A stretch of DNA of 23,446 bases from a virus. The position numbers were made by a program, and so were the translations under genes. This document shows, one piece after another, positions 3,161 through 23,446 of the stretch. The first letter of the stretch is position 1; every line of letters begins with the position of its first letter. The stretch lies in the IMG/VR virus record IMGVR_UViG_3300029914_000143, positions 1-23,446 of that record; one strand, written 5' to 3'. The notes beneath the pieces are model-generated. The model was not told the origin of the DNA and searched no databases. It was given only the letters and a program-made list of their open reading frames with translations.

Positions 3161-3300
3161 TTGATGCTCCCACGGCAAGCCGTGGGATTCTCGTTAGGCT
3201 TGAGCATAATCTGCTCCAGCGTTCCGAAGGGCGTTACCAATACAGCCCACATCCACCGCACTGAGGATGGATGTACTGAACACAGACCAGCCACGCTTAG
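3161..3300 (-). ncRNA. Putative omega RNA of TnpB (right end of the first IS605 element)
   Basis: In TnpB systems the guide RNA scaffold overlaps the 3' end of tnpB and stops at the right end of the element, with the guide read from the adjoining DNA. Here the expected terminal hairpin (3169-3186) and the end GAGCATCAA are present directly after the tnpB stop. The guide would begin at 3160 and run leftward (AGTTGAGTATTACCC on the minus strand). The 5' limit is arbitrary; I infer the RNA from architecture only. Confidence 0.5.
3169..3186 (-). repeat. Right-end subterminal hairpin of the first IS605 element
   Basis: CCCACGGC-AA-GCCGTGGG is a perfect 8-bp palindrome with a 2-nt loop, flanked by GAGAAT and AGCATCAA on the minus strand. 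It is the expected single-strand binding site for a Y1 transposase and also the last stem of the omega RNA. Confidence 0.7.
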
Positions 3301-4258
3301 CAATATTAAAGCCAGCGTTGGCGTCCCTATGCTCGTTATGTAAGCAAACTGAGCAGTGATATTGCTTCCCGTTTGGTTTGTTGATACTACCGCATCTGGA
3401 ACATTCTTGACTGGTATAAGCAGCCGGAACCTCCAAAAGCGTTACGCCACGCAAAGCTGCTTTGTAGCGAAGGAAGGTAAGTAACTGGAAGTATGCCCAT
3501 TGGGATTTTTCTACGAACTTGCGGATTTTCCCTTTACGCACCCCTGCTAAATCTTCCACTGCCACGCACAGACGATGTTCTGCGGCGTAGTCAACAACGG
3601 TTTTGCTTACGATATGGTTCTGATGGGTTGTGCGGCGTGACTGCTTACGCCGGATTTTGTTTAATAGACGGAACTTGCCCGCAGCCTGAAGATTGCTTCG
3701 TCTACCCTTACTTACTGATTTTGTTTTAGCCGGATCATACCCTAACCTACGAACATGCCCGGATTGTAAGTCGGACATTACGGCGATGTTGCCCACGGCA
3801 TTACGGTCTACTCCGAGGCACCCCACTGGATTGTAATTTGGTTCTGGAATGACATTGTAGACGATTGAGGCGTACCAAACTCCCTCCCGTTTATACAACT
3901 CGGCATAACGGATAAACCCCTCCGGTCTACGGCTCCATACAACCGGAATTACGGATTTACCAAAAATTGCAGGAATTCGTATCCCCACCTCAACCAACTT
4001 GATTTGTTTACCTTTGTCCCCACAAACAGGCAGGACGAGGTGAGATACCGACTTACACTTTTTATCCTTCTGATACTTGGCAATGAGGGATTTAGCAATC
4101 ACGCTGGGGATTTCTGGGTAGTATTTACTGCTTGATTCCTTGCGGTTGAGTAGCATAGAATGAACACAGATGTTCGCTTTATCCAGAAGAGAATCCAGAT
4201 GGGCACTAAACGAATCGGAAATCTTGATTTTAATACAGCAAGTCACTGTGTTTATCAT
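3194..4258 (-). CDS. tnpB: TnpB, RNA-guided RuvC-like nuclease (OrfB of IS605)
   Basis: OMEGA-type nuclease of the IS605 family; known TnpB proteins cut DNA next to a short transposon-adjacent motif under guidance of an RNA made from the element's right end. Counting from the ATG at 4258, the RuvC-like catalytic residues are visible: Asp151 in GVDRNAVGN, Glu235 in AVEDLAG, and Asp312 in EHRDANAG. A zinc finger lies between the last two (CSRCG and CSVC). The N-terminal beta-strand start INTVTCCIKIKI supports the 4258 start over the in-frame ATG at 4270. At about 354 aa it is slightly short for the family, with the N-terminal domain looking compressed. Its 5' end overlaps the divergent tnpA by about 60 bp. 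All catalytic residues are present, so it may be active. Confidence 0.88.
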   Translation of the reverse strand: MINTVTCCIKIKISDSFSAHLDSLLDKANICVHSMLLNRKESSSKYYPEIPSVIAKSLIAKYQKDKKCKSVSHLVLPVCGDKGKQIKLVEVGIRIPAIFGKSVIPVVWSRRPEGFIRYAELYKREGVWYASIVYNVIPEPNYNPVGCLGVDRNAVGNIAVMSDLQSGHVRRLGYDPAKTKSVSKGRRSNLQAAGKFRLLNKIRRKQSRRTTHQNHIVSKTVVDYAAEHRLCVAVEDLAGVRKGKIRKFVEKSQWAYFQLLTFLRYKAALRGVTLLEVPAAYTSQECSRCGSINKPNGKQYHCSVCLHNEHRDANAGFNIAKRGWSVFSTSILSAVDVGCIGNALRNAGADYAQA

Positions 4259-4618
4259 CTCACTGTCCATGTTGTGCTCTGCACTAAGTTCCGTAGAAAA
4301 ATCCTTACACCTACAATTAGCAAGTCTCTTTACTTTGTGCTTGGTGAACTCGCTAAAGAACTACACTGTTCTATTACTGAAATAAATGGAGAAGCAGACC
4401 ATATCCATTTTCTTTTGTCCTATCCGCCCACCGTCCAGTTATCCACAATCGTTTCCATCCTCAAATCCAAGTCCGCTCAAGTTATCCTTAACATCTACGG
4501 CTCTTTCTTCTGGGGCAACCATAAAAGAACCATGTGGAGCAGCGGTTACTTCCTTTGTTCCGTAGGAGGAGCTACTTTGGAAGTTCTCAAGAAATATATT
4601 GAGAATCAAGGTAAATAG
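4199..4618 (+). CDS. tnpA: TnpA, Y1 HUH-type transposase of IS200/IS605 family
   Basis: Single-strand transposase that excises and inserts IS200/IS605 elements through a 5'-phosphotyrosine intermediate. The HUH motif is visible as DHIHFLL, followed by the family sequence GGATLEVLKKYIENQ, whose tyrosine is the expected nucleophile. The N-terminal HCVYHLTVHVVLCTKFRRK is the usual first strand of the fold. I chose the ATG at 4199 (MGTKRIG, 139 aa) because homologues begin just before this strand; an upstream ATG at 4160 would give 152 aa. The gene is divergent from tnpB and overlaps its 5' end, as in the IS605 arrangement but unusually tight. It appears intact and could act in trans on the two other elements in the window that lack a transposase. 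Confidence 0.9.
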   Translation: MGTKRIGNLDFNTASHCVYHLTVHVVLCTKFRRKILTPTISKSLYFVLGELAKELHCSITEINGEADHIHFLLSYPPTVQLSTIVSILKSKSAQVILNIYGSFFWGNHKRTMWSSGYFLCSVGGATLEVLKKYIENQGK

Positions 4619-6448: not shown

Positions 6449-7057
6449 ATGAGGTACACCATCTACCTAGTCACCTGTACTGTAACTGGCAAATATTATG
6501 TTGGTCAGACCATGCGGCCACTAAAGGTACGCTGGCGAGTACACTGTAACGCGGCTCGAAAAGGAGTAATAACTCACTTCTACAACGCCATCCGTAAGTA
6601 TGGGTCTGAAGCTTTCATCATTGAATCGTTGGTTGATGGGTTGCCAACTAAAACGGCTGCGGACTTGATGGAGAAGGTATGGATAGTGGCTTTGAACGCC
6701 CGAGACAGAGAGTACGGTTACAATACAACCAGTGGCGGGGACGACCCACCCTCACACAAAGGGGTTACTCGTTCCAAAGAAACTCGACGCAAAATGGCTG
6801 AGTCTAAGCGAGGAAGCAAAAACTCGCAGTTTGGTAAAATCCCGAAAAATACTTACACTATCGAAAATAACCCCAATCACGGCAAGTCACATTCACCTGA
6901 AGTAATAGAGAAGATGCGTGAGGCTCAACGCAAACGATGGGCTGACCCTAACAGCTATACGCGGATTAGAAGCTGCACATGCAGCCGTACGGGGCAGCAA
7001 ACGGGGCTCCCCAAGTCCCGAAACCCGTGCCAAAATAAGTGCCGCCACTATAGGTAA
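6449..7057 (+). CDS. GIY-YIG homing endonuclease with NUMOD3 motifs, frameshifted near its C-terminus
   Basis: A free-standing homing endonuclease on the opposite strand to the structural genes. The N-terminal GIY-YIG domain (about residues 1-95) shows YTIYLVTCTVTGKYYVGQT, the arginine region RWRVHCNAA, HFYNAIRKYGSEAF and a later GYNTTSGGD. A NUMOD3-like DNA-binding motif follows (SKETRRKMAESKRGSKN). After about residue 168 the sequence becomes atypical and Cys/Arg-rich. Another frame encodes a second NUMOD3-like copy, GSKRGSPSPETRAKISAATI, ending at TAA 7077-7079. One extra base near 6956 would explain this, so the original product was about 209 aa. There is no clear Shine-Dalgarno before the ATG. 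Its shift may be real decay or a sequencing error. Confidence 0.8.
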   Translation: MRYTIYLVTCTVTGKYYVGQTMRPLKVRWRVHCNAARKGVITHFYNAIRKYGSEAFIIESLVDGLPTKTAADLMEKVWIVALNARDREYGYNTTSGGDDPPSHKGVTRSKETRRKMAESKRGSKNSQFGKIPKNTYTIENNPNHGKSHSPEVIEKMREAQRKRWADPNSYTRIRSCTCSRTGQQTGLPKSRNPCQNKCRHYR

Positions 7058-10302: not shown

Positions 10303-10450
10303 TTGATGCTCCCAGAGTAAACTCTGGGATTCTCACTCTACACACAGATTACTTCCTGCGTGTTAGCGAATGATGGCTCCATCCGAGCCAAAATAACTTG
10401 TGCTGCTGCTGTATCCCGATGTGTGGTGTATCCACACTTTTCGCAATTGT
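10303..10450 (-). ncRNA. Putative omega RNA of the second TnpB
   Basis: The 3' end of tnpB and the right-end hairpin (10311-10328) have the architecture of a TnpB omega RNA ending in ATCAA at 10303. The guide would start at 10302 and read TAGAGCTGGAAAATTTC on the minus strand, the non-coding leader of the protease gene. The 5' limit is a guess; expression is not shown. Confidence 0.5.
10311..10328 (-). repeat. Right-end hairpin of the TnpB-only element
   Basis: CCCAGAGT-AA-ACTCTGGG is a perfect 8-bp palindrome. Its flanks, TTGATGCTCCC on one side and GGGATTCTC on the other, match the right end of the first IS605 element, while the stem interior differs with compensating changes. Confidence 0.75.
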
Positions 10451-11435
10451 GTTTGCGTTCGCCCAGCGACTTCTTTTTCTTCGTACCGCAAGCAGGACAC
10501 GTCTGGCTCGTATAAGCACAGTTGACTCCAACGATTTTCCTACCAGCATCCGCCGCTTTATAGGAAAGGAAGTTGAAGAACGTTGACCAACTTGCATCAT
10601 GGATTTGCTTGCTCAAGATTCCCTGAGCCAAACCTTTCACGTTGAGATTCTCTACGACGATGGTGCCGAACTTGGCGACCAGCGCAGTCGTAGTCTTGTG
10701 CAGGAAATCCTGACGACGGTTTGTGATACGCTCGTGGACTTTCCGCAACAGGACTATAGCCTTACGGCGGTGACTGCTGCCCTTCTTACGGCGTGCAACC
10801 TTACGTTGTGCTATCCGCAGTTCAGCCTGTCCACATTCGTAGAAGCGTGGGTTGGGAATCATCGTCCCATCGCTGAGTGCTGCAAAGTTCTCGATGCCGA
10901 CATCAATGCCAATCGCATCTGTGTTGACAGGCAGTGGCGTAGGTTCGTACTCAAATGTGAGTGTGCAGAACCAACCCGAAACAGACCGCTTCACAGTGCA
11001 AGTCTTGATGACTGCACCTTCTGGCAGTTCTCTTGACAGGCGCACTTTCACATTGCCTATCTTCGACAACTGAAGGTAGCGGCCTGAGAGACTGAAGCCC
11101 GTGTTGTTGAACTGGAAACTGTCGTACCTGTCCTTGCCTTTGAACCGTGGAAAGCCAGCCTTGCCACCTTCTTTGCAACGGCGAAAGAAGTTCTCGAATG
11201 AACGGTTGAGTTTCTTGATGACATTTTGTAGGACATGAGCATGAACAGTCTGGTACTCAGGGAAGACTTGCTTGAGTTCCGTGAGTTGACGCATCTGCTC
11301 AAACTGACCTATGCGTTGTCCACGCCGTTGTTCCAACCCCATGTTGTAGAGTTCTCGGCACACACCCAGAGTTTGGGAGAGTGCTTGCTTCTGCTTGTTG
11401 TTGGGTTGTAGTTTGTACTTGTATGTCTTTAGCAT
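10338..11435 (-). CDS. tnpB: TnpB, RNA-guided RuvC-like nuclease
   Basis: A 365-aa TnpB with a strong ribosome-binding site (AGGAGGAGAG before ATG). The start MLKTYKYKLQPNNKQKQAL is the standard N-terminal strand. The RuvC-like residues are Asp178 in GIDVGIENF, Glu262 in VVENLNVKGL and Asp341 in HRDTAAAQVIL. A four-cysteine zinc finger (CPACG at 313-317, CEKCG at 331-335) lies before the last Asp. In the last motif the usual Asn (DxNAA) is replaced by Ala. The family cuts DNA adjacent to a short motif under omega-RNA guidance and helps retain the element after excision. It is not closely similar to the TnpB at 3194-4258, so the two arrived separately, yet their element ends are alike. Confidence 0.92.
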   Translation of the reverse strand: MLKTYKYKLQPNNKQKQALSQTLGVCRELYNMGLEQRRGQRIGQFEQMRQLTELKQVFPEYQTVHAHVLQNVIKKLNRSFENFFRRCKEGGKAGFPRFKGKDRYDSFQFNNTGFSLSGRYLQLSKIGNVKVRLSRELPEGAVIKTCTVKRSVSGWFCTLTFEYEPTPLPVNTDAIGIDVGIENFAALSDGTMIPNPRFYECGQAELRIAQRKVARRKKGSSHRRKAIVLLRKVHERITNRRQDFLHKTTTALVAKFGTIVVENLNVKGLAQGILSKQIHDASWSTFFNFLSYKAADAGRKIVGVNCAYTSQTCPACGTKKKKSLGERKHNCEKCGYTTHRDTAAAQVILARMEPSFANTQEVICV

Positions 11436-11466
11436 CTCTCCTCCTATCTGTGTGGTGGCTCGCTAA

Positions 11467-11484
11467 CCCAGACAAATGTCTGGG
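11467..11484 (-). repeat. Left-end hairpin of the TnpB-only element
   Basis: CCCAGACA-AA-TGTCTGGG is a perfect 8-bp palindrome with a 2-nt loop, 24 nt inside the inferred left boundary at 11508 and upstream of tnpB. Confidence 0.7.
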
Positions 11485-11496
11485 CTTGCGCTCGTA

Positions 11497-12657
11497 CTAC
11501 GAACGGTCATCAAATTCTTCAGCAGCCAACTTAAGTCCCATCAGCAGCGAACTCTTTTTGCTCTGCTCTTTTACTTCAAGGGCTTTTGCTTCAGCCTCTT
11601 CCTGCATCTGCTGCTTGTTCAGAACCTTGGAGGCTTCTCCAAACAGGTCATAGGCACGGTAGATAGCCTCTACAGCCTCACGCACCGGGCGGGAATCATT
11701 GGACTCGGTAACACCCTTGGCTTCGAGGTAAAGGCTCTTGAGCTGGTCGGCCAGACGGTCACTCAACTTGAGTGCCTTCTGGGTTGTCATCTCCGAGGCA
11801 AACTTCGAGGGGAGTTCAGTTGGAGGTAACGTGATTCCGGTATTGTCTTCCTTGAGCTTGCGTGCCTTTGCGATTTCAGGGAGACGTTCGCCACCTTCAA
11901 GGATTTCTCCGGTGTCTTCGTCAGATATCCATGAGCCTTCGTAAGCGGCTAGATTTAGCCCCTTGAAAGTCGCAGCCTTAGGTGCGGGAACATCTTCTTG
12001 CTCTATCGGACGATTCATTAGCTCTTCCGCAATAGCAGCAATGAACGCTTGAGCCGTCTTGTCGTTCATCAGGTCTTCAGCAGCGGCAAGGGCCTTCTGA
12101 ATCTTGGCAAGTGTGTCACTTGAAAGCTGTTTAATGTCCGTGCTGGGCTTCTTTGCGGGTGCTGCTTGCGCTGGCGCAGGTGGGGCTATTGGGGCTGGGG
12201 CGGCGACTGGCACTGGAGCAGCTTTCTTGCGAGAGGCCGATACAGCAACCTGAGGAACTTCAACCTTTTCCACTTTCGTGTCACGGTCAGTTACCCAGTT
12301 ATCACTACCGGAGGCTACTACTGGAACATCGGGCTGTTGCTGCACTGAACTTCCGCTTTTATTGGCCATGTTGTTAATCACTTGAATGCTTTCTTCGACC
12401 CTTCTAGCAATTTGGGGGTTGGTTACATCGTCCAAATAATCCTCAAGAGTGGACGCTCCCTGTTGAGCCTGCTGTTTTACTTGCTCCAAAAATGAGAGTG
12501 CCTCTTCGATCTGGTCTAAGTCCTGACTCATTGGGTCGGAAGTCAAGAGCTGGGTCGAGATTCTGTCGGCGTCCGCAATAGCCTTCTCAAAACTCTGCGG
12601 GGATACCAGCACGGTGGCTTTCTTATAACGACGACGGGCAATTAGTCTCGAACTCAT
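11497..12657 (-). CDS. Unidentified phage structural or assembly protein, helical with Ala/Pro-rich linker
   Basis: A 386-aa protein with a strong ribosome-binding site (GGAGGGATAAAG before ATG). The N-terminal 110 residues are helical and charged (FEKAIADADRISTQLL, QIEEALSFLEQVKQQAQQ). Residues about 145-175 form an Ala/Pro-rich linker (PVPVAAPAPIAPPAPAQAAP). The C-terminal 200 residues are again helical and acidic (LSDRLADQLKSLYLEAKGV). I do not recognise the family; the composition resembles the neighbouring scaffold-like protein, and a head-core role is possible. The last codons, GAC CGT TCG TAG, probably belong to the TnpB element inserted at the gene's end. The original product would then end in EEFD. 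Confidence 0.75.
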   Translation of the reverse strand: MSSRLIARRRYKKATVLVSPQSFEKAIADADRISTQLLTSDPMSQDLDQIEEALSFLEQVKQQAQQGASTLEDYLDDVTNPQIARRVEESIQVINNMANKSGSSVQQQPDVPVVASGSDNWVTDRDTKVEKVEVPQVAVSASRKKAAPVPVAAPAPIAPPAPAQAAPAKKPSTDIKQLSSDTLAKIQKALAAAEDLMNDKTAQAFIAAIAEELMNRPIEQEDVPAPKAATFKGLNLAAYEGSWISDEDTGEILEGGERLPEIAKARKLKEDNTGITLPPTELPSKFASEMTTQKALKLSDRLADQLKSLYLEAKGVTESNDSRPVREAVEAIYRAYDLFGEASKVLNKQQMQEEAEAKALEVKEQSKKSSLLMGLKLAAEEFDDRS

Positions 12658-17631: not shown

Positions 17632-19179
17632 TTAAGAATAACTACTTATGAAAGAAGTTGTCCCAAAAGCCCTCATCTGGGGGGCTAACTGTATCTTGCC
17701 TTGAAAGTCATTAACATACGCGGTCTCAGTGACCTCAAGGTGGGTAAGTCTAGTAACTAACGGGCGGTAGACCTTCCAATCCGCCGCCGCAGTGACTGTG
17801 ATGGTGTAGGTGTAGCTGGGTGCGGTGCCTGATGGGTCACGCTGTTCCCCACGGTAGGAGCGGGGCATATCATAGATGGTCACCCCGTCTGCCTCCATAT
17901 TCTCCCGACGCATAACAAGGAGCTGCTGTTTCAGGAGTTCGCTAATATCTGAGGAGGTCTGTAGGTCGTTAGCTCTAACCTCGATGGTGAAGTTCAAGCT
18001 TTCTTTCGAACCGAATACCTCATAGGTCTCGGTAACAGTCGGGGAGACAATAATGGCTATCTGGTCACCCACGAGGACTGAGTCACCCATGGCGAGGTTG
18101 AGGCCGGGGATGATGTTGCTATTGAGGTTGTACTTCTTGGCCACTGCTTGGGTCTGCCCCGCGTCGATACGAACCTCCCAACGTACCCACTCACCCGGCT
18201 TCAGCAATGTTGGGAGGGTATAAGTCCCATCCAAATTCGCATCCACGTTCAGGTAGTCACCTGAGCTGGTGTGAATGAACACCTGTCCAATAGTTTCGGT
18301 GGGGAGGATGCCAAACGGAATGATATTCTCCGGGTTCGTTCCAACAACGGAGGCGGGGTCGGCCTTCATCACCACGTTGGCGGTAATAGTCGAACCGGAA
18401 GGGGTGTACTCACTAAGCTGCACGCGGTTGAAACCGCAGATGTTGTAGTCGATACCGAGACGCAGCTTGTAGCCCGTCTGGTCGGTGAGAGAGAAAGAGA
18501 TTACCGAAGACCCACCCGGTATGGCTATCATTGTTTCTGTGCCAGTAGCCAGAGCGGGGTAGACCACTGTGCTCACAGTTCTCTGGTACCAATAGTCAAC
18601 CATTGGAGTGAGGGTTGTTGTTCCTTGGTTCAGAACCAAAGTTGTCACGGGCTGAAGCAAGAATACATAACTCAGAAATCCCTCAATTTGAACGGGGAGC
18701 CCAGTGGCAGCATCTGAAGCAGTAAGTGTGGTGCCGTCCACCGAGGGGCTCAAATAGGCCACCGACCCTTGGGCGTTCTTAAATCCGCCCTCTTTCCAGC
18801 GGTACTGGTGGATAGTAACTCCCACATTGTTGGTCTTGGGGTCAACTGAGTCTACATTAATATAGTAGACACCTGCTTCAGGAGTAAGCCGGGTTTTGTC
18901 TGTCTCTTGAATCCATTCGATAAACGAGCCGTCACACTGTTCCACCTTGGCTGCGAGGGCACGGCCATACTGCTTGCACATAAAATAGTCAGGGGAGAGC
19001 CGGTTGCCTTGGGTGGAGATGTCCTTAATTGATATTCGGACATCGCCCCACATAACCATACTACTGTCAGAGAAAGTAACCTTTCCCAGTGTGCTCTTGA
19101 ACCTCGGGTTACGATTCACCGCGTCAGTAATGACTCTCAAAAGATACGACATCAAATTTGCGCCCGTGAGGTCTAGCAT
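17632..19179 (-). CDS. Unidentified phage virion structural protein (515 aa)
   Basis: The ATG at 19179 has AAGGAG 8 nt upstream, located inside the end of the overlapping GIY-YIG ORF. The N-terminal 60 residues are mixed helical (NLMSYLLRVITDAVNRNPRFKS). The rest is mostly beta and rich in Thr, Val and Gly (TLVLNQGTTTLTPMVDYWYQRTV, GYKLRLGIDYNICGFNRVQL). The C-terminal part has WEVRIDAGQTQAVAKKYNLN and YEVFGSKESLNFTIEVRANDLQTSSDISELL, which look like a virion domain rather than an enzyme. Position near the sheath suggests a neck, adaptor or baseplate component. I recognise no family with confidence. Confidence 0.75.
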   Translation of the reverse strand: MLDLTGANLMSYLLRVITDAVNRNPRFKSTLGKVTFSDSSMVMWGDVRISIKDISTQGNRLSPDYFMCKQYGRALAAKVEQCDGSFIEWIQETDKTRLTPEAGVYYINVDSVDPKTNNVGVTIHQYRWKEGGFKNAQGSVAYLSPSVDGTTLTASDAATGLPVQIEGFLSYVFLLQPVTTLVLNQGTTTLTPMVDYWYQRTVSTVVYPALATGTETMIAIPGGSSVISFSLTDQTGYKLRLGIDYNICGFNRVQLSEYTPSGSTITANVVMKADPASVVGTNPENIIPFGILPTETIGQVFIHTSSGDYLNVDANLDGTYTLPTLLKPGEWVRWEVRIDAGQTQAVAKKYNLNSNIIPGLNLAMGDSVLVGDQIAIIVSPTVTETYEVFGSKESLNFTIEVRANDLQTSSDISELLKQQLLVMRRENMEADGVTIYDMPRSYRGEQRDPSGTAPSYTYTITVTAAADWKVYRPLVTRLTHLEVTETAYVNDFQGKIQLAPQMRAFGTTSFISSYS

Positions 19180-19463
19180 TGTGCCGCTCCTTTATTCGAA
19201 GTTTGTTGTTTTCGTAGCCGCCACAATTCGGGGAGAGTAGACACCTCGTGGAGTATGGAGATATTGAAGGCGTCAGAACCGTACTTACGAATGGCGTTAT
19301 GAAGGAGGGGAGAGCTTCTCCTGTGTGCATCAGCTAAGTGCTGTGCCCACCGTTGCTCAACTGTACGAACCGTTTTTCCAATGTAGACTTTACCGTTGAT
19401 TTTGTTGGTTATTTTGTAGATAAACATGGGTGCCCCTATGAGAGGCACCCATAGTTCAATCAT
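19173..19463 (-). CDS. Short GIY-YIG endonuclease, probably truncated
   Basis: The GIY-YIG fold is clear: MFIYKITNKINGKVYIGKT, then RWAQHLADAHRR and LLHNAIRKYGSDAFNISIL. The natural start may be the ATG at 19427 (MFIYK) rather than 19463. The ORF ends after the LHEVSTLPELWR segment, which lacks the later part of the domain (the catalytic-Glu and NG/GYN region) and any DNA-binding tail. It overlaps the start of the 515-aa gene by seven bases and contains that gene's ribosome-binding site. The N-terminal half resembles the plus-strand GIY-YIG at 6449. It looks like a deletion remnant of a free-standing homing endonuclease. Its start codon lies in a hairpin. Confidence 0.75.
   Translation of the reverse strand: MIELWVPLIGAPMFIYKITNKINGKVYIGKTVRTVEQRWAQHLADAHRRSSPLLHNAIRKYGSDAFNISILHEVSTLPELWRLRKQQTSNKGAAQC
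19426..19452 (-). promoter_or_regulatory. Hairpin covering the start codon of the GIY-YIG remnant
   Basis: ATGGGTGCC (19426-19434) pairs with GGCACCCAT (19444-19452), 9 bp with a 9-nt loop. On the minus strand the 3' arm contains most of the ATG at 19427-19425. T4 homing endonuclease genes are known to have hairpins that block translation on read-through transcripts; the same role is an inference here. It could also act as a weak terminator after the 171-aa gene, though no T-tract follows. Confidence 0.45.
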
Positions 19464-20335: not shown

Positions 20336-21628
20336 TCATCGTTGAATTTTTCCAAACACTACGCTTCGGCCTATTGGAATCTCCACCTCATTCTCCCAAA
20401 CCTTTCCCGGCTGCAATCTGGCATCCCAGACGGGTTCTCCGTTACCCGTCTGCGCTCCGGGCTCACCCCCTTGGAGGGGATTGCGGATAATCGGGTCGTA
20501 AACGGTAGGTAGCCCGGTGTTGAGGGGGATCAGATAACGGGTATCCCCTGGATTGAGAAGATTTGTATTAAAGTCCTGTTGAAGAAGAATCCCGCGAGGA
20601 GCCTTATAGGTCACCCCAGAAACCACCAGCCGTTCACCGTTGCGGCGAACAATCAGGTCACCATCTTGTGTAATTGGAGTCGGGCCGAGGTACCCGCGAG
20701 ATTCACGAGTAGATTTGATACCCCCGCCTTCATCCAATTCACGAGTAAGAGCAGAGTCGGGCGGGACGTAAGTAATGTCATAAGGGCCGTAGTATCCCCC
20801 TACAAACCCCACCTCGAAGCAGGAGGGACACCCCGTGCGCGGCTGTCCTAAGCCAGACTCAGAGCCTCGGCAAGCGCAGATTTCGCCCCGAGTCTTACGG
20901 AATAGGATATAGGCTGGTTCGCCCACTTGTTCGAATAGCCACTGATTGCGGTTAATCATCTCGCGGTATTCCCAAGTGAGTTGGTCAACCTCCATGGTGT
21001 TTACAACTTTAGTGCCCGGGGCTCCCGGTGGGTGCGTCTCGCCGTGGTCGCCGATGGGCACCACGCAGTAGAATGTGCGAACCATTGAAGTATAAATGTC
21101 AACGTAGTTCGCCAACCTCTTGTAGATTACTTTGATCTCCTTTACCCCAGAGTAATCCGTAATATTGATGTTGTCTGTGTACGCTTGGGCTTGAGCGCTT
21201 ACTCCACCACCATAGGGCAGGGTGTTGTCTCTCTGGAGCCAGACGGTCTGGTCGATTCCTACCACCATCACCGGGCGCATAGGAACGCCGTCCAGAAACA
21301 CCTGCACATCATCCGGGGAGTTGGCGATAGTGGGGCGGCCTGTCACCACATCCGAGTAGATGGGCTCTGGTAGTTTGAACCCCCATTTACCCAATCTACC
21401 GTCATCCCGCCAGTCTTTCTCCTGCACGACGTAGGTTACCTCTTCTAGGCAAACTTGGTCACGGTAGAAGTGCCCTAGCCATGGGTGGGCGTTCAGCTTA
21501 ACCCAGTTAGTCGGATAGTCAAAGGCTCGGTAAAGGTTGTAACCTTTAGTAGAGGCTGGGTCATCCACCCACCACAAATCCCGGCTTCCACAGTAACTGG
21601 AATTCATAACTATAAGGTTTGGTATCAT
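20336..21628 (-). CDS. Phage structural protein with FN3-like N-terminus and cysteine cluster (430 aa)
   Basis: The N-terminus LWWVDDPASTKGYNLYRAFDY with a later HFYRDQV is FN3-like (W, GYN-YR and FYRD landmarks). Further on the protein is mixed beta (GKWGFKLPEPIYSD, DDVQVFLDGVPMRPVMVVG). Residues 251-270 hold CAC...CPSC, a likely metal site. The C-terminal third is Gly/Pro-rich with VRRNGERLVVSGVTYK. It resembles virion proteins near the neck of large myophages but I cannot name it. No Shine-Dalgarno is visible before either ATG (21628 or 21607), because the IsrB element is inserted just upstream. The ATG at 21628 overlaps the IsrB TGA (ATGA). Confidence 0.75.
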   Translation of the reverse strand: MIPNLIVMNSSYCGSRDLWWVDDPASTKGYNLYRAFDYPTNWVKLNAHPWLGHFYRDQVCLEEVTYVVQEKDWRDDGRLGKWGFKLPEPIYSDVVTGRPTIANSPDDVQVFLDGVPMRPVMVVGIDQTVWLQRDNTLPYGGGVSAQAQAYTDNINITDYSGVKEIKVIYKRLANYVDIYTSMVRTFYCVVPIGDHGETHPPGAPGTKVVNTMEVDQLTWEYREMINRNQWLFEQVGEPAYILFRKTRGEICACRGSESGLGQPRTGCPSCFEVGFVGGYYGPYDITYVPPDSALTRELDEGGGIKSTRESRGYLGPTPITQDGDLIVRRNGERLVVSGVTYKAPRGILLQQDFNTNLLNPGDTRYLIPLNTGLPTVYDPIIRNPLQGGEPGAQTGNGEPVWDARLQPGKVWENEVEIPIGRSVVFGKIQR

Positions 21629-22713
21629 CTGATTTTACGCTGCGGAACCTCGCCGTTTACGGCGGGGAGGAGCAGCGTTCTCCATGTGTTAAACGCCAGA
21701 AATTTGCAATCTTCTGGCTTAAAGTTCTGACCCATGCGTTTGCCTGTACTGACATCGTGCAGGCTAATGCGCCCAGAACTCGTCCCGCCGACATAGGCGA
21801 GACCTTTCTTGATGTGCTTGACCAGCGACCCACGGGTAAAACCCATGCTTTGCGTCCCGCCGTAGTTCTTACGGATGCCGCCTTCTGCGAAATTCTGAAC
21901 ATGCAACTGGCGGCGATGAAACCGCAACGGGGTGATAGTGCGAACCCGTGTATTTTCTGGTTTTACGTGCCCTCCGACGAACCAGTTGGCGAGCACCCAC
22001 GAATCGACACAGTGTGCATAGAAACTCTTCGAGGATTTATCCTTGAGCTTCTTGAGGCCCATCTGTGTCCGCATCCCGAAGGTTTCCCAACCTTCTCTTG
22101 TTTCCACACGTCCCAGTTTGCCCAACTCGGCGTAGAACCATTTCTTGCCTACTTCGAGCGGACTGAAGTTGCCGTTGAAAGCCTTTGCTGCACCCTGTTC
22201 CTGCCCGAACGCTTTGTAGGCATCCTTGTATTTCTTGGTTCGTGCTTTGATATCCTCCACCACAAATGTGGTGATGGGATACATTTTCTGGAGCCAGTTA
22301 GCAATACGCAATTTCCAACCCCAGCGTGCCCTTGTCGAAGGCGGAAGTCTGAATCCAACTCCACGATTCCAACGACATTGGCGGTACGGAGTCTTTCTGT
22401 TGCGCCTAGACCTACGCAAGTTTCTGCGAGTCTCAACTGCATCCTTGACCCACGTGACGGCCTCGGCGTTCAAATTCTCAAACGTGTGGGCCTCTGACAC
22501 TACACTGAAACCCTCGAACTTGCTGCCGGGGTCAATCCCGAGAGCTATCGGTTGTTTCTCTCTGGCGGAAGGTTCCATGTTAAGACGGACACAGAAAATT
22601 CCCCGCTTCCAGAAAGGCGTGGCTTTGCGAGTTTTAATCCACGACGCAGCACGGTTGGCTGTGGTCGGCATCAGCGGATTTTGGTTAACATCAACAACAG
22701 GAACGAATAACAT
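21625..22713 (-). CDS. isrB: IsrB-type OMEGA nuclease (IscB-like, HNH domain absent)
   Basis: IscB/IsrB family, relatives of the ancestors of Cas9; IsrB proteins known so far nick one DNA strand under guidance of an omega (HEARO) RNA. From the ATG at 22713 (362 aa): PLMP-type N-terminus (VNQNPLMPTT, residues 9-18), RuvC-I with Asp61 (LGIDPGSKFEG), an Arg-rich bridge helix (RRNLRRSRRNRK), RuvC-II with Glu153 (VVEDIKAR) and RuvC-III with Asp237 (AHCVDSWVLA). Between RuvC-II and RuvC-III there are only about 80 residues with no HNH signature, which defines IsrB. The C-terminal region RKNYGGTQSMGFTRGSLVK and GRISLHDVSTGKR is the family's adjacent-motif-recognising part. AGGAGG precedes the ATG, separated by a small hairpin. 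The final codons run through the right-end hairpin. Confidence 0.85.
   Translation of the reverse strand: MLFVPVVDVNQNPLMPTTANRAASWIKTRKATPFWKRGIFCVRLNMEPSAREKQPIALGIDPGSKFEGFSVVSEAHTFENLNAEAVTWVKDAVETRRNLRRSRRNRKTPYRQCRWNRGVGFRLPPSTRARWGWKLRIANWLQKMYPITTFVVEDIKARTKKYKDAYKAFGQEQGAAKAFNGNFSPLEVGKKWFYAELGKLGRVETREGWETFGMRTQMGLKKLKDKSSKSFYAHCVDSWVLANWFVGGHVKPENTRVRTITPLRFHRRQLHVQNFAEGGIRKNYGGTQSMGFTRGSLVKHIKKGLAYVGGTSSGRISLHDVSTGKRMGQNFKPEDCKFLAFNTWRTLLLPAVNGEVPQRKIR
21648..21667 (-). repeat. Right-end hairpin of the IsrB element
   Basis: CCCCGCCG-TAAA-CGGCGAGG on the minus strand forms an 8-bp stem with one G-T pair. It lies within the last codons of isrB (AVNGE). Loop and stem length match the left-end hairpin. 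Confidence 0.7.
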
Positions 22714-22933
22714 TGGGCTGTAAGCCCTCCTTTGTACATCTCTTCGACACTGCCCGACGAAGCGGCTGAAAACTAGAGAAGCATTCTCAGCATTCTGTGG
22801 ACTACCACGTCCAGTCGATTCAGTTTGCGATTCCAGACTTAACTGGAACTCGACTTGTCTAGTCAACCGTTTAGTCTCGGGCAGACAACTTGGTTTGTTG
22901 TCTGCTGCAAGCCTCTGGCTTTAGCCAGAGGTG
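22714..22933 (-). ncRNA. Putative omega RNA (HEARO-like) upstream of isrB
   Basis: About 220 nt directly before the isrB ATG are dense in stems on the minus strand: GCCAGAGG/CCTCTGGC (22912-22931), GCAGACAAC/GTTGTCTGC (22881-22905), AGTCGA/TCGACT enclosing TTCCAG/CTGGAA (22813-22855), TGGAC/GTCCA (22798-22813) and GGGCT/AGCCC (22715-22727) just before the ATG. HEARO RNAs of IscB/IsrB lie at this position, with the guide at their 5' end. The guide would therefore come from the flanking 191-aa gene. The limits are inferred. Confidence 0.65.
22726..22731 (-). promoter_or_regulatory. isrB Shine-Dalgarno separated from ATG by a hairpin
   Basis: AGGAGG lies 12 nt before the ATG at 22713, which is too far unless the GGGCT/AGCCC hairpin between them folds. 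Folding of the omega RNA end might therefore adjust isrB translation. Confidence 0.4.
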
Positions 22934-23446
22934 GTTGACCTTGGGGACGTTCCGAGTGCTGTCCCGAATTATGTCTACGGCGGCGTGCAGGGTAGAGAAA
23001 CCCTCTTCAAGATACTTTACTACCTTAACTAAGTCATCTTCTAGGTGAGAAACTTCAGCTCTATTGAAACTCGCCTTGGCACTCTTCAGATGTAAAACAA
23101 TGTGTGTTTCTGTTGTCTTATCCAACGCTGGGAGGGCTCGTCTAATCGCCACGTATAGTCGGTCTTTCAATGACTTCATGGTGTAGTTGTAGTACCGACG
23201 CACCGACATCGGATTCGAGGAGTCGTAGTCCCTAACCGGATTGTTCAAAATCTCATCATGTAACTCAAGGAGGTTGTGAGCCAGTTCCGAGTCATAATGG
23301 TCGAGGTCTTCGTGGGAGTAAAACCCAGCGTGCTTCACTACCGGATATTGCAACAAGGCGTTACTGTAGAAGCGGATGCTTGCGTGCATCGCTTTTGCTT
23401 TCGGGGGAGTCCGATGCGTGTCGATAAAATCCCCCACAAAATTCAT
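22871..23446 (-). CDS. Helical phage protein (191 codons), 3' end altered by the IsrB element
   Basis: The ATG is the last three bases of the window, so the ribosome-binding site is outside and a longer N-terminus cannot be excluded. The protein is helical and charged (KAKAMHASIRFYSNALLQY, DSELAHNLLELHDEIL, RRYYNYTMKSLKDRLYVAIRRALP, LVKVVKYLEEGFSTLHAAVDIIRDS). Residues to about VPKVN are phage sequence; the last 20 (HLWLKPEACSRQQTKLSARD) are probably encoded by the left end of the inserted element, including its hairpin. The original gene may have ended at an ATGA overlap with the 430-aa gene, or been fused to it in frame. Family not recognised. Confidence 0.7.
   Translation of the reverse strand: MNFVGDFIDTHRTPPKAKAMHASIRFYSNALLQYPVVKHAGFYSHEDLDHYDSELAHNLLELHDEILNNPVRDYDSSNPMSVRRYYNYTMKSLKDRLYVAIRRALPALDKTTETHIVLHLKSAKASFNRAEVSHLEDDLVKVVKYLEEGFSTLHAAVDIIRDSTRNVPKVNHLWLKPEACSRQQTKLSARD

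What the first reader, a model, noticed from the sequence alone, without database searches (positions are those of the whole stretch)
21625..22933. Phage-borne IsrB (HNH-less IscB) with a HEARO-like RNA
Seen: PLMP-type start, three RuvC residues, bridge helix and family C-terminus, but only about 80 residues and no HNH between RuvC-II and RuvC-III; upstream there is a 220-nt stem-rich region ending at the ATG. Known: IsrB proteins are compact RNA-guided nickases. It is unusual to find one placed in virion genes, apparently intact.
Basis: partly seen in the sequence, partly recalled or inferred. Interest (0 to 1): 0.75.

Follow-up and report, generated by a model that had tools for sequence, protein, structure and literature searches.

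The report
RNA-guided nickase transposon in a phage
A large soil phage carries, just before the start codon of a tail gene, a complete small mobile element made of an RNA-guided DNA-nicking enzyme (IsrB) and its guide RNA; a pair of sibling phages with and without such an element shows that these elements insert cleanly and that their guide RNA matches the sibling that lacks one.

Summary
Window 21625-22713(-) encodes an intact 362-aa IsrB. Its best solved relative by sequence and by predicted fold is DtIsrB (8DMB). RuvC residues D61/E153/H234/D237 and TAM-reading R326/Q329 are kept; there is no HNH domain. The 226 nt upstream form a HEARO-type omega-RNA: full-length Rfam RF02033 match at E 8e-7, below Rfam's gathering score, with strong covariation across 16 relatives.

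New here are the boundaries and insertion logic. Related phage elements run from GTCAAC to the base before an ATGA, usually the downstream gene's start codon. L007 (occupied) and L140 (empty) are 88-89% identical sibling phages: insertion is precise, between Shine-Dalgarno and start codon, and L007's guide+ATGA equals L140's intact allele. By analogy the window element is 22939-21629, guide GCACTCGGAACGTCCCCAAG, TAM ATGA.

The window's IsrB sits in a fully supported clade found only in viral contigs, at different sites in different phages. Best reading: an IS200/IS605-type IsrB element circulating among phages, with the nickase favouring its retention and copying (inferred, not shown). Phage-borne IsrB has precedents (Mic1, Ma-LMM01), so this is a new member of a known kind.

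The parts
21629..22939 (-). whole IsrB element (1311 b), from the HEARO 5' end to the base before ATGA
   Evidence: ends shared with 16 other viral elements; boundaries proved in the homologous pair L007/L140; by analogy here, no empty allele of this very site was found
21625..22713 (-). isrB, 362 aa; stop TGA overlaps the ATG of the tail gene (ATGA)
22714..22939 (-). HEARO-type omega-RNA scaffold (Rfam model extends to 22679)
22940..22959 (-). predicted 20-nt guide GCACTCGGAACGTCCCCAAG, in phage flank
   Evidence: position by analogy with DtIsrB (20-nt guide, PMC9581776) and with L007/L140; only place in the window with up to 3 mismatches
22912..22931 (-). left-end hairpin CCTCTGG-CTAAAG-CCAGAGG
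   Evidence: helix 2: all 8 pairs covary
21648..21667 (-). right-end hairpin CCCCGCCG-TAAA-CGGCGAGG
   Evidence: shared position in relatives
21625..21628 (-). ATGA: predicted TAM (NTGA) and start codon of the tail gene
   Evidence: TAM of DtIsrB from PMC9581776
20336..21628 (-). downstream gene, homologue of the minor tail protein of Tunturiibacter phage Tunturi_5
   Evidence: 50% identity over full length; the ATG is conserved as start in relatives
22871..23446 (-). upstream virion-region gene of unknown function; its last 23 codons lie inside the element
   Evidence: homology to L058 and L051 ends at the element boundary

Best explanation
A complete, apparently functional IsrB-omegaRNA element of the IS200/IS605 kind has inserted between two co-directional virion genes of a large tailed phage, just before the ATGA start codon of a tail gene. 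Transcription makes an RNA whose 5' end is flanking phage sequence (guide) joined to the HEARO scaffold. IsrB binds it and, on a DNA copy holding guide+ATGA (the uninterrupted allele, as in sibling phages or after excision), nicks the non-target strand. The donor is immune because the element separates guide from TAM. The nick favours repair or recombination from the element-bearing copy, so the element is kept and copied into empty sibling genomes during co-infection (homing-like). The first jump to a new ATGA needs a Y1 TnpA acting in trans. Shown: protein family and fold, RNA structure, insertion site and boundaries in a homologous pair, a guide identical to the empty sibling allele (L007/L140), different sites in different phages, conserved catalytic residues. 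Inferred: expression, nicking, copying by recombination, TnpA in trans.
For: Family and fold; key residues; covarying HEARO RNA; purifying selection against L003 (dN/dS about 0.06, dS near saturation so rough); precise occupied/empty pair with guide+TAM intact in the empty sibling; NTGA at the right end of the elements; IsrB before different genes in different phages (tail gene, DNA polymerase, baseplate hub, kinase); virus-only clade. Nickase activity and NTGA TAM of the family: PMC9581776. Gene drive by the related TnpB in plasmids: PMC11870625.
Against: No expression or activity data. Nearest empty allele of the window's own site was not found, and joining the window flanks would fuse two genes in frame without a stop, so the guide may have drifted from any real target. 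Only one occupied/empty pair was found. Its guide match follows from insertion at that site and does not by itself show homing. A frameshifted copy in L005 shows that the gene is sometimes lost.
Confidence: 0.7

Rival explanations
1. A passive passenger: the IsrB element jumped into the phage and persists only because it sits harmlessly at a gene junction; the nickase serves transposition or retention in bacterial hosts and does nothing useful in the phage.
For: Surviving insertions lie at gene starts, as expected if only harmless ones remain, and bacterial elements show the same rule; viral and bacterial IsrBs mix in the wider tree; in Mic1 an incoming IsrB element came from the host and lowered phage fitness (PMC11237433).
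Against: Catalytic and TAM residues are invariant across viral copies, amino-acid change is strongly held back, and the window clade is virus-only with 100/100 support.
Confidence: 0.2
2. The IsrB RNP acts as a weapon against rival phages: it nicks conserved gene-start sequences of competitors to hinder them, rather than to copy itself.
For: The L007 guide matches a sibling phage perfectly, across the ribosome-binding site and start codon of a baseplate gene.
Against: A nick is readily repaired; guides are set by the insertion site and not chosen; with up to 2 mismatches only the empty sibling and one chance-level place were hit among the fetched loci.
Confidence: 0.07
3. It is an IscB or a decayed RuvC-family pseudogene rather than an IsrB.
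For: NCBIfam's only match is guided_IscB, over the N-terminal half.
Against: That match is 105 bits against a cut-off of 175; no HNH domain lies between E153 and H234; 8DMB (IsrB) ranks first by sequence and by fold; the ORF is intact.
Confidence: 0.02

Closest known systems
DtIsrB-omegaRNA (Desulfovirgula thermocuniculi; PDB 8DMB; PMC9581776)
   Same: Domain order PLMP-RuvC-bridge helix-RuvC-TI, about 350 aa, no HNH, catalytic and TAM-reading residues, HEARO-type RNA directly upstream, NTGA motif
   Different: About 30% identity; linker between RuvC-II and III about 14 residues longer; carried in a phage; RNA below Rfam's gathering score; activity untested
IsrB element (orf2067) gained by Microcystis phage Mic1 (PMC11237433)
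   Same: IsrB with about 207 bp upstream and 59 bp downstream, inserted at ATGA in a phage genome
   Different: There it came from the host in the laboratory, broke a tnpB-like gene and lowered burst size; here it sits at a gene start in a wild phage and belongs to a virus-only clade
RRXRR gene gp171 of Microcystis phage Ma-LMM01 and relatives
   Same: IsrB-like RRXRR protein in a phage genome
   Different: About 35% identity, other neighbourhood (uracil-DNA glycosylase, clamp loader)
TnpB of IS200/IS605 as gene drive in plasmids (PMC11870625)
   Same: Guide records the insertion site; element-free copies are targeted, favouring element-bearing copies
   Different: TnpB is a double-strand nuclease, IsrB nicks one strand; shown by experiment there, inferred here
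Free-standing phage homing endonucleases (GIY-YIG, HNH)
   Same: Proposed outcome: spread into siblings that lack the element; two GIY-YIG genes lie in the same window
   Different: Those recognise DNA by protein; here by RNA, and with a nick

Membership tests
IsrB (OMEGA nickase) | RuvC domain split by a bridge helix, with catalytic D, E, H and D | tested here: met
   D61, E153, H234, D237 invariant in 18 sequences; helix 88-104
IsrB (OMEGA nickase) | N-terminal PLMP domain | tested here: met
   PLMP at 13-16, aligned with Pro17/Pro20 of DtIsrB
IsrB (OMEGA nickase) | No HNH domain between RuvC-II and RuvC-III, about 350 aa | tested here: met
   362 aa, about 80-residue linker, no HNH match
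IsrB (OMEGA nickase) | TAM-interacting domain with the Arg and Gln that read TGA | tested here: met
   R326 and Q329 align with R323 and Q326 of DtIsrB
IsrB (OMEGA nickase) | NTGA at the end of the element opposite the guide | tested here: met
   ATGA at 21628-21625; ATGA or GTGA in 15 of 15 viral elements with a detected right end, though the detection asked for NTGA
IsrB (OMEGA nickase) | Structured omega-RNA directly upstream of the gene | tested here: met
IsrB (OMEGA nickase) | RNA-guided nicking of the non-target strand | not testable with these tools
   needs biochemistry
Rfam RF02033 HEARO | Score at or above Rfam's gathering threshold (83 bits) | tested here: not met
   42.3 bits, E 8.2e-7, full length; 13 viral relatives also stay below it. 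I therefore call it HEARO-type and not a curated member
Rfam RF02033 HEARO | Conserved helices kept by compensatory change | tested here: met
   28 of 37 pairs with changes on both sides, 0 of 500 shuffles as high
IscB (NCBIfam NF040563) | Curated score cut-off and HNH domain | tested here: not met
   105 bits against 175; HNH absent
IS200/IS605 element, autonomous | Y1 transposase TnpA inside the element | tested here: not met
   no other gene in 22939-21629; the window's TnpA lies 17 kb away beside a TnpB. At most a non-autonomous member

The most novel reading that the evidence does not exclude
IsrB elements form a phage-adapted lineage that spreads from phage to phage by RNA-guided homing: the nickase recognises ribosome-binding site plus ATGA start codon of virion and replication genes in element-free siblings, and the element is copied in during co-infection, an RNA-guided counterpart of phage homing endonucleases that works through a single-strand nick.
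Probability: 0.35. Interest if true: 0.75.

Novelty: new member of a known kind. Interest (0 to 1): 0.45.

Why it matters
What IsrB does for its element is, as far as I know, still open: a nickase cannot simply destroy empty copies as TnpB can. Phage siblings with and without the element, where the guide matches the empty sibling perfectly, give a natural system in which RNA-guided homing by a nick can be tested. The virus-only clade, the start-codon insertion rule and the below-threshold RNA also mean that default Rfam and NCBIfam annotation misses these elements in phage genomes.

Tried and rejected
Default Rfam scan: empty; an E-value search rescued the match. Exact search for the window's own empty allele in IMG/VR: none. 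Relatives of the upstream gene: only L051 and L058, too distant to fix the ancestral end of that gene. Empty-site searches for L013, L004 and L003 gave no close element-free relative. The idea that start-codon insertion is phage-specific was rejected: bacterial elements show it too (26 of 38 against 27%, p 2e-7). The idea that the window's own TnpA mobilises the IsrB element found no support: the TnpB elements end in ...GGGAGCATCAA while the IsrB element has other terminal bases; left open. Original sources on HEARO insertion sites and IsrB activity (Weinberg 2009, Altae-Tran 2021) are not in the library.

Full report
Observation. The ORF at 21625-22713(-) encodes 362 residues without an internal stop. 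Pfam RRXRR matches at 5e-35. The best solved relative is DtIsrB, aligned over residues 4-343 at E 6e-34. An AlphaFold2 model from 18 viral homologues (mean pLDDT 76.7, pTM 0.76) has DtIsrB as its first PDB match (E 1.3e-28, TM 0.69/0.75), followed by IscBs and then RuvC resolvases. Residue mapping on DtIsrB gives E153, H234 and D237 next to D61 for RuvC, R96 and R100 in the bridge helix, N274 for the phosphate lock and R326/Q329 for TAM reading. The RuvC and bridge-helix residues and R326 are invariant in the viral relatives. The HNH linker is about 14 residues longer than in DtIsrB and is predicted with low confidence.

RNA. The 226 nt before the ATG match the whole HEARO model (E 8.2e-7, 42.3 bits) but miss Rfam's gathering score, as do all 13 viral relatives tested. 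The 220 nt before the ATG fold at z -4.6. An alignment of 16 viral members gives 30 consensus pairs, 25 with two-sided changes. With the closing stem added, 88% of cells pair against 70% in shuffles and 30-46% when slid by 1-3 columns, and 28 of 37 pairs show two-sided changes. Most of that structure was derived from the same alignment, so the slid control flatters it, but the two-sided changes are far beyond every shuffle.

Element boundaries. In 17 viral loci the element begins GTCAA or close to it, followed by a hairpin, mostly with a TAAA-type loop, and GGGCTTG. Most end with a second hairpin, TTTCCGnnGC and about 10 nt before ATGA. The decisive case is L007 against L140: sibling phages, 89% and 88% identical over 1.3 and 1.5 kb on the two sides, one with a 1286-b element, the other reading straight through CAGCGTAAACAAGCAGGAGG|ATGATGATGGC, with 29 and 14 identical bases at the junction and nothing duplicated or lost. 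The guide implied by the left flank plus ATGA is therefore intact in the empty sibling. There the guide contains a Shine-Dalgarno sequence and the TAM is the start codon of a baseplate hub homologue. By analogy the window element is 22939-21629, the guide 22959-22940 and the TAM 21628-21625. In the window the isrB stop overlaps the tail gene's ATG, which would allow translational coupling (inference).

Start-codon rule. Of 15 viral elements with a detected right end, 14 are flanked by ATGA and one by GTGA; in 11 this codon opens a frame of at least 60 codons, against 31% of control ATGA/GTGA sites (p 0.001). Bacterial elements show the same (26 of 38 against 27%, p 2e-7). The simplest reading is that insertions elsewhere disrupt genes and are lost. 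A targeting preference cannot be told apart from this with the present data.

Context and spread. The window is an IMG/VR fragment of a tailed phage: tail sheath, major head protein and head maturation protease homologues, and a homologue of the minor tail protein of the 308-kb Tunturiibacter phage Tunturi_5. A 485-kb uncultured phage, LR745208, has both a homologous tail gene and an IsrB 62% identical, about 60 kb apart. L005 has an IsrB element, about 80% identical in its first 315 residues but frameshifted, before the same tail gene and next to a different upstream gene. L004 has one before a DNA polymerase gene. In a tree of 50 sequences the window's IsrB falls in a 100/100-supported clade found only in viral contigs (L001, L003, L004, L005, L017). 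The nearest sequences in 84,980 GTDB species genomes are at most 61% identical (best 80 of 236 kept). Elsewhere in the tree viral and bacterial sequences mix, so exchange with bacteria has happened more than once.

Mechanism. Protein, RNA, TAM residues and site logic fit an RNA-guided nickase that recognises only uninterrupted alleles; the donor junction reads GTCA after the guide, so it is no target. That the nick then promotes retention or copying of the element is inference, by analogy with the TnpB gene drive shown in plasmids (PMC11870625). That first jumps need a Y1 transposase in trans is inference from the IS200/IS605 family.

Novelty. IsrB elements in phages are on record: Mic1 acquired one at ATGA from its host (PMC11237433), and Ma-LMM01 carries an RRXRR gene. 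I therefore file this as a new member of a known kind. The added value is the occupied/empty sibling pair, the virus-only clade and the start-codon placement.

Open point. Joining the window flanks would give an in-frame fusion of the upstream gene (169 codons) with the tail gene. In relatives the upstream gene ends at the tail gene's start (L051) or overlaps it (L058). A stop codon lost by drift after insertion, a small deletion, or a fused ancestral gene are all possible.

Noticed in passing
window 3194-4618: IS605-type pair: Y1 TnpA (4160-4618, +) overlapping a divergent TnpB (3194-4270, -) that matches guided_TnpB only from profile position 96, so its N-terminal part looks missing or replaced; 3' end ...GAATCCC-hairpin-GGGAGCATCAA.
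   Followed up: partly
window 10305-11499: Lone full-length TnpB (10338-11435, -) starting right after the stop codon of the preceding gene; its 3' hairpin CCCAGAGTTTACTCTGGG is the reverse complement of the hairpin type seen at IsrB element ends (L005: CCCAGAGTAAAACTCTGGG).
   Followed up: partly
window 6449-7057 (+) and 19173-19463 (-): Two GIY-YIG homing-endonuclease genes, the first with NUMOD3 motifs, the second only 96 aa; with IsrB and two TnpBs this makes five mobile nuclease genes in 23 kb of virion genes.
   Followed up: no
L005 6710-7780: The homologous tail gene in this phage carries an insertion of about 1060 b kept in frame, intein-like (starts CYSDDTEVFTKDGWKLF, ends in HN-type residues before the next extein); the same phage has a frameshifted IsrB element in front of the gene.
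   Followed up: partly
L020 and L022 (contig IMGVR_UViG_3300020171_000017): Two diverged IsrB elements at different sites of the same 135-kb viral contig, both followed by TTTTTTTTATGA.
   Followed up: no
bacterial loci L059-L138: In bacterial genomes too the ATGA at the right end of IsrB elements is most often the start of an open frame (26 of 38 against 27% of control sites).
   Followed up: partly
window 22871-22940: Joining the two flanks of the element would fuse the upstream gene and the tail gene in frame with no stop; the ancestral arrangement is unexplained.
   Followed up: partly
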